A DNA stretch of 64,000 nucleotides, from the NCBI RefSeq assembly GCF_000296445.1, contig NZ_JH815198.1, positions 1,055,114 to 1,119,113 of the forward strand, given 5' to 3'. Below are positions 18,341 to 24,088 of this stretch, piece by piece. Positions within the stretch are counted from its first letter, which is position 1. Each line of letters starts with the position of its first letter. Both the position numbers and the translations under genes were made by a program. This DNA comes from Slackia piriformis YIT 12062 (GTDB taxonomy: Bacteria; Actinomycetota; Coriobacteriia; Coriobacteriales; Eggerthellaceae). The notes under the pieces were generated by a model. That model was not told the origin of the DNA. It was given only the letters and a program-made list of their open reading frames with translations, and ran no database searches.

Positions 18341-19345
18341 CTACAGGTCGCGCAGTGCGCTTCGCGCGGCGCGAACAGCCTTGATGACCTTCGAATAATC
18401 CATACGCGTCGGACCGATGACCGCGACGACGCCCGATGCGTCGGACGGGCCGTACTGGGCCGCCACCACGGAAACGCCGGAAAGCTGGCTCGCATCGTTT
18501 TCGCTGCCGATGCGCACCTCGAGGGGATTGCCCGAGCTTGCGACATCGTCGAAAAGATGCATGAGAACGGTATCGTCCTCGAGCACCTGCAGCACCGGTA
18601 GCGCTGCGGCGGCGTTGCTGAATTCAGGCTTGCTCAGAAGCGACGAAATGCCCAGTCTGTGGGCACGGCCCGATTCCTCCACGTCCACGCAAGCCATAAG
18701 CTCGTCGATGACGACGTGCGCGAGAGGACTCGAAAGAGCATCGCAGACCTCCTGCGCCCCGATGCCGCGGACTTCCGACATGGACTTGCCCGAAAGAACC
18801 TCATTCAAGGCGTTTTGAACGCCTGCAAGTTCGTCGGAGGCGACTTCGTCGGCGAATTCGATATGACGATCGAGCACCTGTCCGTCGTTGGTGACCACCA
18901 CCATCAAAGCGCGGTGCGGCGTAAACGACACGAGAGACACCTGCTTGACCGACGTAGCAAGCAACGACGGCGCAAGCACGATGGACAGGCAATCGGTAAG
19001 ACGCGTCAACGCCGCCGAGGTTTTATCCATCAGATCGTCCATCTTCGTAGCCGCATCACGCAGCTCGTCGAATGCGTCTCCTTCGGTTTCGTCGCCGAAC
19101 TCCCTTTCGAGCAGGTCGTCCACGAAGGCACGATACCCCGCGTCGGTGGGAATGCGGCCAGCCGAAGTATGGGGAGATGTCAAATACCCCTCGTCCTCGA
19201 GCACCGAAAGCTCGTTTCGCACCGTAGCAGAGGAAACGCCGAGGCTGTAGCGATCGACAAGCGTGCGCGAACCGACAGGTTGCGCATTGACGATGTAGTC
19301 CTCGATAAGGGCTTGGAGCACCTTCTGTCGACGATCGGACAACAC
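18341..19345 (-). CDS. hrcA: heat-inducible transcription repressor HrcA
   Basis: HrcA represses chaperone genes by binding CIRCE. The protein has 334 residues from a GTG start with AGGAGG about 11 bases upstream. The winged-helix N-terminus (LSDRRQKVLQALIEDYI, SSATVRNELSVLEDEGYLTSPHTSAGRIPT) is typical, and the rest matches the GAF-like dimerisation region. A CIRCE-like site lies 66 bases upstream, which suggests autoregulation of hrcA-dnaJ and the genes after it. Confidence 0.96.
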   Translation of the reverse strand: MLSDRRQKVLQALIEDYIVNAQPVGSRTLVDRYSLGVSSATVRNELSVLEDEGYLTSPHTSAGRIPTDAGYRAFVDDLLEREFGDETEGDAFDELRDAATKMDDLMDKTSAALTRLTDCLSIVLAPSLLATSVKQVSLVSFTPHRALMVVVTNDGQVLDRHIEFADEVASDELAGVQNALNEVLSGKSMSEVRGIGAQEVCDALSSPLAHVVIDELMACVDVEESGRAHRLGISSLLSKPEFSNAAAALPVLQVLEDDTVLMHLFDDVASSGNPLEVRIGSENDASQLSGVSVVAAQYGPSDASGVVAVIGPTRMDYSKVIKAVRAARSALRDL

Positions 19346-19410
19346 GAGACGTCAGACCTCCTCCATACGTTGTGGCGCAACGATGCGCATTGAATCATAC
19401 AAACGTGATT

Positions 19411-19437
19411 CTAGCAGCCTTGAAACACGAGTGCTAA
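19411..19437. promoter_or_regulatory. CIRCE-like operator for HrcA
   Basis: One arm is the perfect consensus GAGTGCTAA, the spacer is exactly 9 bases, and the other arm (CTAGCAGCC) matches TTAGCACTC at six of nine positions. It lies upstream of hrcA on the minus strand and also in front of the divergent island genes. Confidence 0.75.
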
Positions 19438-19582: not shown

Positions 19583-20461
19583 ATGGATATTTCAGCCCAA
19601 GACCCCAATAGACGACGCATACGTCGGCAAAACCTTGACCGCGCAAGTGTTGCGCAGTTTAGCGTTGTCGGCGAAAGCGAGGTACCAGGCATGTGGACAA
19701 CGGGTCGACTGAGCAAGCTGACTGGAATTCCCGCACGGACCCTGCAGGAATGGAGCAAAAAACCCAAAACAAGCACTCGAGGAAAAACGAGCGGATCGGG
19801 AATCCTCCCCGCTACGACGAACCCCGGAAACGGCTACCGACTTTTCGATGAGGATTCGCTTTACGACATCCTCGTCATAAAGCTTGCAAAAGAGGCCGGG
19901 CTGCAGGACGCGCAGATTCGCGACATCACAATGCCGAAAACGAAAGGACGACCAATGGCCGATGCCTATATAGAACGGCTCTTGCGTAAACGTTGCGAAA
20001 TCGATCGCAAAATCGAGATAGCAAGAACGATTTCTTTCGTCGAACGCACAAAAATCTTCTCGCTTCGCGCCGATTGCGAAACCGAGGACGCACGCGGCTT
20101 GGAAGGACTGATGGCATCCGAACTTGTGGACTGCATCGCCGCACGTATTGCCGAATCGAGCCGAAACGAGCAGGCCGAAACCGACCGCCTAATCAACGAC
20201 GCATCATGGCATGCCGGCGTCGAAACACTTGAAATGCTCTGGAGGAGCGGAGAAAGCCCCCGCGGGGGCGACGCCATGCGAGCGGTCGAAATGCTCCATA
20301 GAAGCCTTGACGGCATCCCCTATGCCATTTCGACCGAGATGTTTTCCGCCATTGCGACCAAATGGGCGTCGAAGGGATACACCCGCATTGTTTTGGCACT
20401 TCGCAATGGCGAAGAGTTCCTCGCGTTTTTCGAACAAGCCGCCTTAGCCTACGGCGCTTGA
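19583..20461 (+). CDS. MerR-like transcriptional regulator with an extended wing
   Basis: This 292-residue protein is the first gene of a plus-strand island. AAGGGAG lies before the chosen ATG; a second in-frame ATG (MWTTGRLSK, residue 37) fits the usual MerR beginning. The helix-turn-helix is at about residues 38-60 (TGRLSKLTGIPARTLQEW) and GYRLFDEDSLYDI (85-97) matches the second wing region. Between them lies a Ser/Thr/Gly-rich insertion of some 20 residues, where ordinary MerR proteins have a few. The long C-terminal part (about 120-292) is mostly helical and matches no ligand domain I recognise. It has 4 scattered Cys but no metal motif. Probable role: regulator of the downstream genes; this is inference from position. 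Confidence 0.7.
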   Translation: MDISAQDPNRRRIRRQNLDRASVAQFSVVGESEVPGMWTTGRLSKLTGIPARTLQEWSKKPKTSTRGKTSGSGILPATTNPGNGYRLFDEDSLYDILVIKLAKEAGLQDAQIRDITMPKTKGRPMADAYIERLLRKRCEIDRKIEIARTISFVERTKIFSLRADCETEDARGLEGLMASELVDCIAARIAESSRNEQAETDRLINDASWHAGVETLEMLWRSGESPRGGDAMRAVEMLHRSLDGIPYAISTEMFSAIATKWASKGYTRIVLALRNGEEFLAFFEQAALAYGA

Positions 20462-20505
20462 GCACGGATATGCCGACAATCATCTAAGACAAAGAAAGGG
20501 AAACC

Positions 20506-21327
20506 ATGACCGAAAACAATTCCGAGAAAGCACGCATGGTGAAAAAACCGGCCGTAATCACCGCAGCATGTATCGCCGCAGCCGCATTTGTCGTAGTCGC
20601 ATTATTTGCAACGCACGTCATTTGTCTCCACGATTGGAAGCCCGCCACCTGCACCGAACCCGAAAAATGCGCCGTATGCGGAAGAACGCAAAACGAACCT
20701 CTTGGACACGACCTACAAGAAGCCACTTGTCTCGATCCGCAAATATGCCTGCGCTGCAACGAAACCTTCGCAAGCCCGCTTGGCCATGATGTAGACGAAT
20801 GGGAAACCGTGCATGAGGCAAGCTGTTCCGAAACAGGCGAAAAGCACGGCATCTGCCAACGCTGCAAGCAGACGATTACGGAAGAAATTCCCAAAATCGC
20901 CCATACCGAAGGCGACTGGAGCATCGTCGTCGACGCAGCGATCAACAGCGACGGAACCGTCACACCGGGAGAAAAGGCGTTAATTTGCTCGGTATGCGGA
21001 TCGGAAATAAAGCGGGAGCAATACAGCGTGGAAGTAACGCTTTCCCAGCAAAACGCCCTGAAGCAGACCCGCGATTATTTGACGTGGCTGCACCCCTCGT
21101 ATGCCTATCTCGTCGATTGGCTTGAAACCTACGACGGATACACGCACGAAGACGCAGTGTTTGCAGCCGACTATTGCGGCGCCGATTGGAACGAACAGGC
21201 GATTCTGTGCGCCAAAAACAGACTGAGCATGTCGGGAGCGTCGCGCGACGGCTTGGTCGAAGAGCTCCGCTACATGCAGTTCGACAACGCCCAGATAGAG
21301 CAGGCCCTCGCGGCGGTTGGATATTAA
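20506..21327 (+). CDS. membrane-anchored CxxC-repeat protein with C-terminal Ltp-like repeats
   Basis: The 273-residue protein has a strong ribosome site (AAAGAAAGG) and follows the regulator by 44 bases. One hydrophobic segment (about residues 15-38) anchors it, with the rest probably outside. Residues 42-165 carry four CxxC pairs (C55/C58, C81/C84, C117/C120, C161/C164), three of them in a repeat of the form ATC-x5-6-CxxC ending with LGHD. Residues 180-273 contain two copies of a motif like the Ltp/host-cell-surface-exposed lipoprotein repeat (YTHEDAVFAADYCGADWNEQAILCAKNRL; FDNAQIEQALAAVGY). Ltp proteins in some phages block DNA injection by other phages. Whether this one does is not known. 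There is no lipobox. Confidence 0.7.
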   Translation: MTENNSEKARMVKKPAVITAACIAAAAFVVVALFATHVICLHDWKPATCTEPEKCAVCGRTQNEPLGHDLQEATCLDPQICLRCNETFASPLGHDVDEWETVHEASCSETGEKHGICQRCKQTITEEIPKIAHTEGDWSIVVDAAINSDGTVTPGEKALICSVCGSEIKREQYSVEVTLSQQNALKQTRDYLTWLHPSYAYLVDWLETYDGYTHEDAVFAADYCGADWNEQAILCAKNRLSMSGASRDGLVEELRYMQFDNAQIEQALAAVGY

Positions 21328-21391
21328 ACAAGTTCTGCAAACGGACGGGTACGGCATACCACGCCGTACCCGCTTGCGAAAGGAGCCGCCA

Positions 21392-22090
21392 ATGGCGAAA
21401 GCAATAGAGAACACCTCCGAAAAAATCGATGAAGAGAAAGCCGGGCGGATTCTCGACACGATTTACGAAAAAACGCTTACAGGTATTCCCAAAGTAAGCA
21501 GACCGGTCGACGACCTGGCCGACGACTATATCCAAAAAAGCAATTCGCCTGAAAAAGCGGCCAAAAAACTCGCAACCGCGCAGATTGCAAAATGCGGAAC
21601 ATCGGGATTCATTGCCGGCCTCGGAGGTCTCATCACCCCGCCCGTGGCAATACCCGCCAATCTAAGCAGCGTTCTCTATGTGCAAATGCGCATGATAGCA
21701 GCCATCGCCAAAATCGGCGGATACGACCCCAAAACAGACCAAGTGCAGACCATGGCGTACATATGCCTCACGGGAAGCGCAGCCTCCAACATCGTGAAAG
21801 ATGCGGGCATAAAAATAGGAGAGAAAACTCTCGAGGCCGCAATCAAGAAAATCCCAAGAGCAGCTCTTACCAAAATCAATCAGAAAATCGGATTCAGGCT
21901 TATAACGAAATTCGGCGAAAAAGGGGCCATCAACCTCGGAAAAATGATTCCTGTTGCAGGAGGGATTATCGGGGGAAGCTTCGACGCCGTCTCTACGGCA
22001 GCCATCGCATCAAACGCCATCAAGGTATTCATCAGGCACGAAGACATATCTCAGCCCTCCTCTTCGAACGATGGAGCCATAAATCTCTGA
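21392..22090 (+). CDS. EcsC-family protein
   Basis: The start at 21392 has AAAGGAG at the right distance and gives 232 residues. The pattern resembles EcsC-domain proteins (PF12787): a short charged N-terminus, SPEKAAKKLATAQIAKCGTSGF, then a glycine/proline-rich hydrophobic block (GLGGLITPPVAIPANLSSVLYVQMRMIAAIA, residues 76-106) and a second one (GKMIPVAGGIIGGSFDAVSTAAIA, 183-206). These stretches suggest membrane association. EcsC function is unclear; domain members occur in phage defence and secretion-related contexts. After the TGA the frame stays open for 20 codons to a TAG (see findings). Gene content is AT-richer than the flanking core genes. Confidence 0.72.
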   Translation: MAKAIENTSEKIDEEKAGRILDTIYEKTLTGIPKVSRPVDDLADDYIQKSNSPEKAAKKLATAQIAKCGTSGFIAGLGGLITPPVAIPANLSSVLYVQMRMIAAIAKIGGYDPKTDQVQTMAYICLTGSAASNIVKDAGIKIGEKTLEAAIKKIPRAALTKINQKIGFRLITKFGEKGAINLGKMIPVAGGIIGGSFDAVSTAAIASNAIKVFIRHEDISQPSSSNDGAINL

Positions 22091-22210
22091 AGCATCGTTG
22101 GCGACACCGTGCAGGCAATCGGTGGATTCATCGGAGCAATCAGAAGAAAATAGCCTCATGAGACGGCAGGCACCCCCGTAGCGTTACACAGGAATAAAGG
22201 AGGAACGCCT

Positions 22211-22390
22211 ATGTCCCCATTCGACCCACTCAAATTCGCAAGCGATATTGCCAACGGGATAGGAAGCGGCATAGGGCAGGTGGCCAGCGACGCCTTCCGT
22301 ATCGCCGAACAGGCCGGCGCAGCGGTGGCCGACGGCATCGGCCAAGCCTTCGAAGCGGTGACAAAAACCACCGCAGACGCAGCCAATTGA
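22211..22390 (+). CDS. 59-residue glycine/alanine-rich helical protein
   Basis: This short gene has an excellent ribosome site (AAAGGAGGAAC, 4 bases before ATG) and reads MSPFDPLKFASDIANG... to a TGA at 22388-22390. The protein is rich in Ala and Gly with GxGxG-like spacing (ANGIGSGIGQVASDAF; AEQAGAAVADGIGQAFEAV) and regularly placed acidic residues, which would make one or two amphipathic helices. It has no signal peptide or cysteine. It lies between the EcsC gene and the 136-residue gene. No homology is recognised; an interaction with membranes or with its EcsC neighbour is only a guess. Confidence 0.65.
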   Translation: MSPFDPLKFASDIANGIGSGIGQVASDAFRIAEQAGAAVADGIGQAFEAVTKTTADAAN

Positions 22391-22459
22391 AAACCCGAAC
22401 CACGCTATAGCGCGACAATCACGAAAAAGTGCGTATACATCAAGCCTTGCAAAATAACC

Positions 22460-22870
22460 GTGTTGAAAATCACCGAAGACAACAACGGAAACCCCATCGA
22501 AAGCCGTCCGCGCACAATGAGAATGTCTCGGGACGGGGACGGCATTGAGATAGTCGATTCGCTCGGACAAACCATCGAATCTTTATCTATAGCGAATTGC
22601 AGCCTTTTCAGCAAAAGCGAGAAAGTGGATACCGGAAACCCCCTGATGAAAATAGCCGCAGGCGCTTTCGGATGGTCGCATACGCCATACGGACCGCTTC
22701 CGGGAGCATTGCTTGGAGCGGCATCGAGCATTTTCGCCCAAAAAGAACGCGATATCTGGCATGCGGAAATCATGCAACACAATGGCGAAAAAATAGTCTA
22801 CCGATTGGCCGATAAATCAGATGGCGAAGAACTCATCGATTTTCTTGAGACATACATGCGCGAGATGTAA
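22460..22870 (+). CDS. hypothetical protein with an internal glycine-rich hydrophobic segment
   Basis: The 136-residue frame opens at a GTG (22460) or the adjacent TTG; there is no ATG upstream and the ribosome site is weak, so the start is uncertain. The N-terminal and C-terminal parts look like beta-strands (MRMSRDGDGIEIVDSLGQTIESLSI; RDIWHAEIMQHNGEKIVYRLA) and the chain ends with a helix (GEELIDFLETYM). Between them residues 60-91 form a Gly/Pro/Ala-rich hydrophobic segment (MKIAAGAFGW, LPGALLGAASSIF). This resembles a PH-like fold with a membrane-inserting loop, but I cannot assign a family. It is the last gene of the plus-strand island. Confidence 0.6.
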   Translation: MLKITEDNNGNPIESRPRTMRMSRDGDGIEIVDSLGQTIESLSIANCSLFSKSEKVDTGNPLMKIAAGAFGWSHTPYGPLPGALLGAASSIFAQKERDIWHAEIMQHNGEKIVYRLADKSDGEELIDFLETYMREM

Positions 22871-23056: not shown

Positions 23057-24088
23057 TTAGGCATCGCCGCCTAGATACGCCGCTTCTTCGGCCTCTATGC
23101 GCACGCGGTCTTCAAGCAAACGCTCAAGCACAGCATCAAAATCGTCGATGGTCACGCATTGGTTCAAATCGCCCCGAGCACGGGCGGCGCCTGGTATGCC
23201 TTTCAGATACCACATGACATGCTTGCGCATGTACACGAGGTTGTTCCCCATGCGCTGAGAAAGAAGCTCCGCATGCCGATGCGCCATGGCCACGCGCTGC
23301 TCGGCGGAAGGCGGCGCAGGCTCGTCCTTGCCGCAAAGCGCAGCTTTCACCTGAGAGAACAACCACGGATTACCCTGCGCGGCACGACCGATCATCACCG
23401 CGTCGCACCCCGTCTGCCGCACAAGAGCCACAGCGTCAGAACCGCTTTTCACGTCTCCGTTACCGATTACGGGAATGCTGAGCGCACGCTTGACGCGCGC
23501 GACGACGTCCCAATCAGCAACGCCAGTGTAGAACTGGGCGGCTGTGCGGCCATGAACCGCCACGGCGGCCGCCCCGGCGTCTTCCACCATGCGGGCGAAC
23601 TCGACCGCGCAGTCCTCGCCTGCGCAATACCCCTTGCGAAACTTCACCGTGACCGGATGCTCAACCGCCCCGGAAACCCGGCGCACGATATCGCATGCCA
23701 AATCGGGAGTCTTCAGCAGCGCGCTGCCGTCGCCCTTCTTCACGATTTTCGGAGCCGGACATCCCATGTTGATGTCTATATACGCAAGCGCATCGCCCAT
23801 CTGTTCTTCGACCCATGCGGCCTCGCGGGCCATGGTATCCGGCTCATGGCCGAACAGCTGCACGGCCACCCGGCTTTCGTTGGAAGCACGGTCGAGCAGA
23901 TGGCGCGTCTTCTCGTTGGCAAACGAAAGCGCCTTCGAAGAAACCATCTCGGTATAGGTAAGGTCCACCCCGCATTCAATGCACAGCTGGCGAAAGGCGA
24001 TGTCGTTCACTCCCGCCATGGGGGCAAGCAGCACGGGAACCGCATCGGAGGAAACCCGGTCTGACAAAAGGCTACGGAGCCAGCTCAT
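23057..24088 (-). CDS. dusB: tRNA-dihydrouridine synthase
   Basis: Dus enzymes reduce uridines in tRNA with FMN and NADPH. From the ATG at 24088 (GGGAGG upstream, 17-base overlap with hemW) it has 343 residues. It shows the start block VLLAPMAGVNDIAFRQLC, the active-site cysteine loop NMGCPAPKIVKKGDGSALL, VHGRTAAQFYTG, PVIGNGDVKSG and MIGRAAQGNPWLF. The two C-terminal helices end near MRKHVMWYLKG. It is DusB-like by these blocks; the exact uridine target is not determinable. Confidence 0.93.
   Translation of the reverse strand: MSWLRSLLSDRVSSDAVPVLLAPMAGVNDIAFRQLCIECGVDLTYTEMVSSKALSFANEKTRHLLDRASNESRVAVQLFGHEPDTMAREAAWVEEQMGDALAYIDINMGCPAPKIVKKGDGSALLKTPDLACDIVRRVSGAVEHPVTVKFRKGYCAGEDCAVEFARMVEDAGAAAVAVHGRTAAQFYTGVADWDVVARVKRALSIPVIGNGDVKSGSDAVALVRQTGCDAVMIGRAAQGNPWLFSQVKAALCGKDEPAPPSAEQRVAMAHRHAELLSQRMGNNLVYMRKHVMWYLKGIPGAARARGDLNQCVTIDDFDAVLERLLEDRVRIEAEEAAYLGGDA

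What the first reader, a model, noticed from the sequence alone, without database searches (positions are those of the whole stretch)
19583..22870. Strand-reversed five-gene island combining membrane-active protein families with its own regulator
Five plus-strand genes sit between minus-strand hrcA and dus. They comprise an unusual MerR-like regulator, a membrane-anchored CxxC/Ltp protein, an EcsC-family protein, a 59-residue helical protein and a 136-residue protein with a glycine-rich insert. The codons look AT-richer than in neighbours. Ltp is a superinfection-exclusion family in some phages; EcsC-domain and small helical proteins point at membranes. A phage-exclusion or envelope-stress module is a reasonable but untested reading.
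Basis: partly seen in the sequence, partly recalled or inferred. Interest (0 to 1): 0.72.

Follow-up and report, generated by a model that had tools for sequence, protein, structure and literature searches.

The report
MerR-controlled operon of membrane-surface proteins
A small, patchily inherited gene set in a gut bacterium makes proteins shaped to lie on the cell membrane, one of them from a family that viruses and plasmids also carry, so it may be an untested way of shutting out viruses.

Summary
The plus-strand block between hrcA and dus is real, AT-richer than its flanks and accessory: 3 of 12 genus genomes have it. It is not five genes. The 59- and 136-residue ORFs are halves of one gene cut by an in-frame TGA at 22388; three relatives read through that place. 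The MerR most likely starts at 19691: the stretch before it holds a MerR-type promoter with a 19-bp spacer and a dyad, one copy in each of the four genus genomes with a close MerR relative, none in the other eight.

MerR, exported or anchored protein and EcsC recur together in other Coriobacteriia. EcsC is PADLOC candidate PDC-S29; a sister species has PDC-S30 and DUF4230 at the same site, with a similar tail. The last gene joins an amphipathic helix to a PH fold (Z 12.4). In viral contigs EcsC relatives mostly sit reversed between their neighbours (12 of 15).

Best reading: an accessory membrane-guard operon, perhaps anti-phage. Function is untested.

The parts
18341..19345 (-). hrcA, left flank (core gene)
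   Evidence: present in 12 of 12 genus genomes
19635..19665 (+). MerR-type promoter and operator: -35 TTGACC, 19-bp spacer with dyad GCGCAA-GTG-TTGCGC (19641-19655), -10 TAGCGT
   Evidence: footprint shared with L002 and G001 and G011; TTGACNGCGCAANNNTTGCGC occurs once in each of G000, G001, G003, G011 and in none of the other 8 genus genomes; dyad 1 in window against 0.02 expected
19691..20461 (+).
   Evidence: PF13411 9.4e-6; dN/dS 0.17 from 19691, 0.57 for the upstream extension
20506..21327 (+). membrane-anchored protein: one TM helix, four CxxC motifs, two Ltp repeats; no lipobox
   Evidence: PF07553 3.3e-9, two stretches; phrog_4980 superinfection exclusion 3e-17; KD peak 2.71 at residue 17; CxxC at 55, 81, 117, 161, no lipobox in the first 60 residues
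21346..21372 (+). RNA hairpin 18 nt after the Ltp stop codon and just before the EcsC ribosome site, without a U-tract
   Evidence: z -3.33; a hairpin of different sequence follows the Ltp stop in L002 too, z -4.52, but there it lies about 190 nt before EcsC
21392..22090 (+). EcsC-family protein, PADLOC candidate PDC-S29, 232 aa
   Evidence: PF12787 1.6e-10; PDC-S29 1.1e-79; dN/dS 0.11
22091..22153 (+). in-frame remnant of the EcsC amphipathic tail, after TGA 22088-22090
   Evidence: aligns with the end of the longer L002 tail; 21 codons, dN/dS 0.49
   Evidence: uninterrupted in L002, G216, G322; bridge dN/dS 0.15; PH/PTB fold; amphipathic N-terminus
   Evidence: low confidence there; strongly hydrophobic in G216 (KD 2.41), not in the window copy (0.86)
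23057..24085 (-). dus, right flank (core gene)
   Evidence: next to hrcA in 9 other genus genomes

Best explanation
Shown: the block is one accessory operon of a recurring kind, MerR, then an exported or anchored protein, then EcsC, then (here and in G003 and G322) an amphipathic-PH protein, inserted between hrcA and dus. Shown by conservation: its only operator copy in the genome lies at the regulator's own promoter. Inferred: the MerR is an autoregulator and switch of this operon alone. On a signal it untwists its 19-bp-spacer promoter and transcribes the operon. The gene-2 protein is held outside the membrane. EcsC and the amphipathic-PH protein settle on the inner face through amphipathic helices, a hairpin and a PH-like domain, and together they alter or shield the membrane. 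Inferred and least certain: the threat they guard against is phage, by blocking genome entry as Ltp and other superinfection-exclusion proteins do. In this genome the last gene carries an internal TGA and EcsC has lost most of its tail, so this copy may be partly inactive.
For: Patchy locus, 3 of 12 genus genomes. Operator once in each of the 4 genus genomes with a close MerR relative and in none of 8 others. MerR, exported protein and EcsC in a row in L005/G044, L044 and G322, the lipoproteins of the last two being 45% identical over 242 positions, and MerR with EcsC in L035. Same site in G001 with DUF4230 and PDC-S30 but an EcsC tail 74.5% identical over 153 bp to that of L002, while the cores share only chance-length DNA matches. 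Coherent amphipathic periodicity (best angle 98-101 degrees) in all four g45 N-termini and three EcsC tails. PH fold Z 12.4, rmsd 2.4 over 101 residues. g2 to the superinfection-exclusion PHROG 3e-17; g3 to PDC-S29 1.1e-79. EcsC relatives in 15 viral contigs; in 12 of 15 both neighbouring ORFs are on the other strand. 357 plasmid records, including a 2131-bp plasmid on which EcsC is the only listed gene, one next to a restriction-modification pair and one between Cmr and Csm6 genes. Among 139 immediate neighbours of EcsC some match JukA, Cas10, SIR2, Old and AriA models.
Against: No activity of any kind has been measured. The defence-neighbour counts have no control set. Many EcsC genes stand among housekeeping genes, and of the 300 Klebsiella plasmid records I inspected one, where EcsC lies next to ter-type genes. 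No defence gene was seen beside the window operon, and the flanks were not scanned for one. g2 lacks a lipobox, and most of it is deleted in G003 while the operon stays, so the Ltp part is dispensable. g45 relatives in G216 and G368 have no EcsC in the 12 and 10 kb read, the G368 one being a piece only. The EcsC model is mediocre (mean pLDDT 66) and found no clear match among solved structures. An ordinary alpha helix also peaks near 100 degrees, so the 11/3 reading is not proven.
Confidence: 0.42

Rival explanations
1. The operon is an envelope-stress module, not an anti-phage one: a MerR that senses a membrane-active compound (bile salt, peptide, antibiotic) or lipid stress turns on a protein coat that stabilises the cytoplasmic membrane, working like PspA or LiaH-type coats. 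Phages and plasmids carry EcsC because it helps any host.
For: MerR regulators usually answer to small molecules or oxidative and metal stress (general knowledge). Amphipathic helices and a PH fold. DUF4230 and lipoproteins, not known defence genes, are the recurring partners: DUF4230 is among the five Pfam families tied as commonest in 139 EcsC neighbours, 3 each, with phage integrase and three FAD/NAD-binding families; it was confirmed in L048, L057, L078, L035 (two genes) and G059. The G216 relative of g45 lies beyond an Asp23/AmaP-like cluster, families named from recall.
Against: PDC-S29 and PDC-S30 were listed as defence candidates (PADLOC); reversed single-gene placement in phage late regions is typical of lysogenic-conversion and exclusion genes (general knowledge); the locus is patchy and its parts differ between species.
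Confidence: 0.38
2. In this genome the operon is a decaying remnant: TGA codons have cut the last gene and the EcsC tail and nothing useful is made from them. This can be true together with either functional reading.
For: Two genes end at TGA codons after which the frame still resembles that of the relatives. The ORF-5 start GTG 22460 has no visible ribosome site. In G003 the Ltp gene is mostly deleted.
Against: MerR, the EcsC core and the bridge codons keep low dN/dS (0.17, 0.11, 0.15), although a recent break would not show. The operator is intact.
Confidence: 0.4
3. The TGA codons are read through or recoded, so that full-length g45 is made in this organism.
For: The bridge after the TGA is as constrained as the rest of the PH part (0.15 against 0.18, 23 codons); two TGAs of this kind occur in one operon.
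Against: No tRNA-Sec over the family cut-off in the genome; no stable stem after the TGA (z +0.77); L002 has no Cys there, but an indel.
Confidence: 0.1

Closest known systems
PDC-S29 and PDC-S30 (PADLOC phage-defence candidates)
   Same: g3 matches PDC-S29 over 216 of 220 positions, E 1.1e-79; the core at the same site in G001 and that of G322 are PDC-S30, E 4.5e-90 and 4.5e-91, as are those of G059 and the second copy in this genome
   Different: Here inside a MerR operon with an anchored protein and a PH protein, and with an amphipathic tail in the relatives; the PDC-S30 proteins of G001 and G322 do not match Pfam EcsC at E 0.01
Ltp superinfection-exclusion lipoprotein of phage TP-J34 (PMC3952083, passages seen)
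   Same: Two Ltp repeats, net negative repeat region (15 acidic and 6 basic residues in 99); predicted membrane anchor
   Different: TM anchor without a lipobox and four CxxC motifs in place of the serine-rich spacer; in an operon between two core genes
MerR regulators with 19-20 bp spacer promoters
   Same: HTH, and a dyad inside a 19-bp spacer
   Different: Enlarged wing between helices; no Pfam match for the C-terminal part
PH/PTB/FERM-F3 fold
   Same: Fold of residues 76-219, Z up to 12.4
   Different: Helical hairpin inserted between strands and an amphipathic helix in front; no Pfam family reached its cut-off and no PDB sequence matched
Lipid-surface amphipathic-repeat proteins (apolipophorin III, plant senescence domain)
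   Same: 98-101-degree periodicity over 52-110 residues; the G001 tail weakly matches Senescence 1.9e-4 and ApoLp-III 0.006, both below the curated cut-offs
   Different: Attached to EcsC or to a bacterial PH fold

Membership tests
PDC-S29 (PADLOC) | Match to the family profile over its length | tested here: met
   1.1e-79, positions 1-216 of 220
PDC-S29 (PADLOC) | Anti-phage activity | not testable with these tools
   Candidate only; PMC11514479 passages list it in strain ST1A and call PDC genes candidates
Ltp superinfection-exclusion proteins | Ltp repeats | tested here: met
   PF07553, two stretches, 3.3e-9
Ltp superinfection-exclusion proteins | Lipobox and lipid anchor | tested here: not met
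   No lipobox by pattern in the first 60 residues; hydrophobic TM segment instead
Ltp superinfection-exclusion proteins | Binding to the tape measure protein, block of DNA injection | not testable with these tools
   Mechanism from PMC3952083 passages
MerR regulators | MerR HTH | tested here: met
   PF13411 9.4e-6, above the cut-off
MerR regulators | Promoter with 19-20 bp spacer holding a dyad | tested here: met
   By sequence only: TTGACC, 19 bp, TAGCGT; TATGGT in G011
PH-fold proteins | Two packed sheets capped by a C-terminal helix | tested here: met
   Predicted model only: Z 12.4, rmsd 2.3-2.4 over 100-101 residues
Genomic or defence island | Integrase, att repeats or neighbouring defence genes | not tested
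   None seen between hrcA and dus when read; no search for att sites, flanks not scanned against PADLOC
Selenoprotein (TGA as Sec) | tRNA-Sec in the genome | tested here: not met
   Ten weak matches, none over the family cut-off

The most novel reading that the evidence does not exclude
The hrcA-dus locus is a part-swapping membrane immunity operon. Under one MerR switch, PDC-S29 and PDC-S30 cores are exchanged on a common amphipathic tail and paired with exchangeable outside sensors (CxxC-Ltp, DUF4230, lipoprotein), and with a bacterial PH protein they coat the inner face of the membrane to stop phage DNA entry. Prophages use the bare EcsC core for the same end, as a reversed single gene in their late region.
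Probability: 0.28. Interest if true: 0.82.

Novelty: new variant of a known kind. Interest (0 to 1): 0.55.

Why it matters
EcsC-family proteins are common (114 genome stretches, of which 80 were kept; 357 plasmid records), are named as phage-defence candidates, and the listings I saw showed no paper on what they do (one search listed 30 of 359 papers, nearly all on other meanings of the word). This locus gives them partners, a regulator with a defined operator, and a testable topology: outside protein, inner-face coat. It also shows two candidate families at one site, and a bacterial PH-fold family that reached no Pfam cut-off and matched no solved sequence. If the anti-phage reading holds, it explains why phages carry EcsC; if not, it points to a membrane-coat stress system.

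Tried and rejected
Rejected: five separate genes. Rejected: MerR start at 19583. Rejected: selenocysteine reading of the TGA. Rejected: fixed core operon. Not found: relatives of g1, g2 or g5 in viral contigs or of g5 in phage records. No clear solved-structure match for EcsC: the best row is the MxB stalk, Z 7.0, rmsd 4.7, which may be a common arrangement. The Pfam and PADLOC census of EcsC neighbours has no control set and shows only the 25 commonest of 154 and 65 families, so I do not claim enrichment; gene choice was by longest ORF and will hold antisense ORFs in GC-rich loci. For that census 75 of 80 loci were used: L002 and four near-duplicates (L025, L027, L056, L073) were dropped, neighbours under 90 aa skipped and long ones cut at 900 aa; 139 neighbours resulted. 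For the EcsC structure alignment 46 proteins were given: 42 of the 81 EcsC ORFs and 4 of the 6 viral ones. Amphipathicity: one of two controls, an EcsC core stretch, also had a high moment (p 0.0035) but at 88 degrees; the hrcA control did not (p 0.30); the tail of the second EcsC of this genome was weakest (p 0.04); the angle cannot tell an 11/3 helix from a plain alpha helix. My DUF4230 profile was built from its own hits, so the Pfam check is the evidence. The class search for g45 reached 2 of 396 genomes, the order search 5 of 395, the phylum search 1 of 396, own genome counted; the G368 hit is a C-terminal piece only. The 1083-bp hrcA-dus gap of G006 was read but its content not identified.
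Full report
**What is there.** Five plus-strand ORFs lie between minus-strand hrcA and dus. The genome is a Slackia relative: L002, the nearest public locus, is a Slackia MAG, and its contig has the length and content of contig C110 of same-genus genome G003. Profile searches give MerR for g1, Ltp repeats for g2 and EcsC for g3, and nothing above cut-off for g4 and g5. g2 also matches PHROG families named superinfection exclusion (3e-17 and 1.3e-12), and g3 is PADLOC PDC-S29 (1.1e-79). GC falls from about 0.61 to 0.53 across the block. GC3 is 0.55-0.67 in the block against 0.70-0.77 in five flanking genes.

**Two corrections to the gene list.** In L002 the 59- and 136-residue ORFs are one ORF, which runs off the contig. 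The same uninterrupted architecture occurs in G216, another family of the order, at 232 aa, and in G322, another genus of the family, at 237 aa. In the window the frame is open except for TGA 22388-22390. I call the single gene g45. EcsC too ends at a TGA after which the frame continues for 20 residues that resemble the end of the longer L002 tail, but with weak constraint (0.49). tRNA-Sec was not found over its cut-off and no stable stem follows the g45 TGA, so recent breakage is the likelier cause. The second correction is the start of the MerR. The stretch 19635-19665 reads TTGACC, 19 bp with the dyad GCGCAA-GTG-TTGCGC, then TAGCGT. It differs at 2 of 31 positions in G001, where the protein is only 51% identical, and it returns upstream of the 40% identical MerR of G011, at another genomic site, with TATGGT as -10. 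TTGACNGCGCAANNNTTGCGC occurs exactly once in G000, G001, G003 and G011, the four genus genomes with a close relative of this MerR, and in none of the other eight. The start is therefore most likely ATG 19691, and the regulator most likely controls only its own operon.

**The locus is accessory and its parts differ.** hrcA is in 12 of 12 genus genomes. In nine of them dus follows within 103-515 bp (eight) or 1083 bp (G006), and the MerR and EcsC searches place neither there. The operon lies between hrcA and dus in the window, in G003 (MerR, a remnant of Ltp, EcsC, g45; dus on the next contig) and in G001 (MerR, DUF4230, a second EcsC type; dus on the next contig). Continuity across the two contig breaks rests on matching contig ends, not on assembly. 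The EcsC of G001 is PDC-S30 (4.5e-90). Its core shares only chance-length DNA matches with that of L002, yet the last 153 bp are 74.5% identical (E 2e-14). So the promoter, the regulator and the EcsC tail are kept while the outside protein and the EcsC core differ. Exchange of the middle part is my inference.

**The arrangement recurs.** G322 has MerR, a lipoprotein, PDC-S30 with a tail, and g45, with a small reversed HTH gene in between. L005/G044 has MerR, a 45-aa ORF, a lipoprotein and PDC-S29. L044 (Kribbibacterium) has MerR, a lipoprotein 45% identical to that of G322, and PDC-S29. L035 has MerR and PDC-S29 with two DUF4230 genes downstream. G059 has DUF4230 and PDC-S30. DUF4230 genes also flank EcsC in L048, L057 and L078, and DUF4230 is one of five Pfam families tied as commonest, 3 of 139 each, among immediate EcsC neighbours. 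Against this, of the 80 EcsC loci only four (L002, L005, L035, L044) showed a MerR of this profile, and g45 relatives in G216 and G368 have no EcsC in the 12 and 10 kb read, so the parts also work alone or with others.

**Structure.** The AlphaFold2 model of g45 (four sequences) is fairly confident, at pLDDT about 80, in most of residues 81-130 and 181-210 and poor in 1-75 and 139-177. The confident part is a PH/PTB/FERM-F3 fold: Foldseek puts PH and PTB domains first (best E 4e-3, probability 1.00; no row reaches 1e-3), and VIA-align gives Z 12.4 at rmsd 2.3-2.4 over 100-101 residues, its 50 rows being PH, PTB, FERM and related entries. A helical hairpin is inserted between two strands; it is strongly hydrophobic in G216 (2.41), borderline in G322 (1.67) and weak in the window (0.86). 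The N-termini of all four g45 proteins, and three EcsC tails, have their strongest periodicity at 98-101 degrees over 52-110 residues, as lipid-surface helices of the 11/3 kind do; a plain alpha helix cannot be told apart this way. The EcsC model is mediocre and has no clear match. A hairpin of different sequence follows the Ltp stop codon in both the window and L002 (z -3.33 and -4.52); its role is open.

**Phages and plasmids.** Fifteen IMG/VR contigs encode an EcsC relative. By ORF calls both neighbours of EcsC are on the opposite strand in 12 of 15. L162 (same contig as L146) and L148 have a same-strand neighbour upstream and L165 is cut by the contig end. L165-L167 are near-identical, as are L168-L170, where two of three calls rest on a 64-aa ORF; the copy in L172 is truncated. 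Counted by distinct context this is 8 or 9. A terminase large subunit like that of L144 is in six of the contigs. Such lone reversed genes are the usual place of morons (general knowledge). On plasmids, 357 records match, 300 of them Klebsiella. Single records show EcsC as the only listed gene of a 2131-bp plasmid (that gene table is incomplete by design), beside a Sau3AI-type restriction pair, between Cmr and Csm6 genes, near a Tn3 element, and beside ter-type genes with mercury genes further off. In PMC11514479 (passages seen) PDC-S29 is listed in one S. thermophilus strain; I saw no test of it in those passages. PMC3952083 (passages seen) says that Ltp repeats act by binding the tape measure protein. 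PMC13041782 (passages seen) deleted a DUF4230 gene of S. mutans without a significant biofilm defect.

**How it most likely works.** Shown by sequence or prediction: one accessory operon, a conserved operator at its own promoter, an anchored protein, a PH fold, amphipathic helices. Inferred: MerR autoregulation, assembly of EcsC and g45 on the inner face of the membrane, and a guarding role. The phage reading (about 0.4) rests on family company: PDC-S29 and S30, Ltp, morons, mobile elements. The envelope-stress reading (about 0.38) rests on the regulator type and the membrane anatomy. Neither has been tested. In this genome the last gene may be broken, so tests should use the intact relatives.

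**Novelty.** The parts are known kinds; their combination, the presence of PDC-S29 and S30 at one site, and the amphipathic-PH family did not turn up in my searches (paper listings; families and structures). Those searches cover open-licence PMC papers only, and I saw capped listings.

Noticed in passing
G000:C1:1282812-1283306 (L107 1195-2265 -): A second EcsC-type protein (PDC-S30) with an amphipathic tail elsewhere in the same genome, with no MerR seen in the 3.5 kb read.
   Followed up: partly
G000:C1:1424947-1425423 and 1429091-1429417 (L134, L135): Separate paralogues of the CxxC half and of the Ltp half of g2 lie about 4 kb apart, so g2 looks like a fusion of two modules.
   Followed up: partly
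L002 4642-5762: In G003 a deletion joins the end of the MerR gene directly to the last 46 codons of Ltp (in another frame), removing the rest of that gene while the operon stays.
   Followed up: yes
L138 (2131-bp E. coli plasmid): EcsC (PDC-S29) is the only listed gene of a tiny cryptic plasmid.
   Followed up: no
L144, L145, L147, L171, L172: Phage late regions with several small proteins that share an H-[HY]-G-[IV]-x-G-[MQ]-[KR]-W-G-like motif near the N-terminus, in tandem around the terminase; function unknown to me.
   Followed up: no
L003 6822-7486 and 8770-9434: Two near-identical copies of a RelE/RelB-like toxin-antitoxin pair (named from recall) downstream of EcsC in Adlercreutzia.
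   Followed up: no
L157 3344-3559 -: A small reversed HTH gene sits between lipoprotein and EcsC of the G322 operon; a similar reversed HTH gene is near the G059 operon (L104 3001-3216).
   Followed up: no
window 19410-19437: A degenerate CIRCE-like element before hrcA (right half GAGTGCTAA kept) lies between hrcA and the MerR promoter; name from recall.
   Followed up: no
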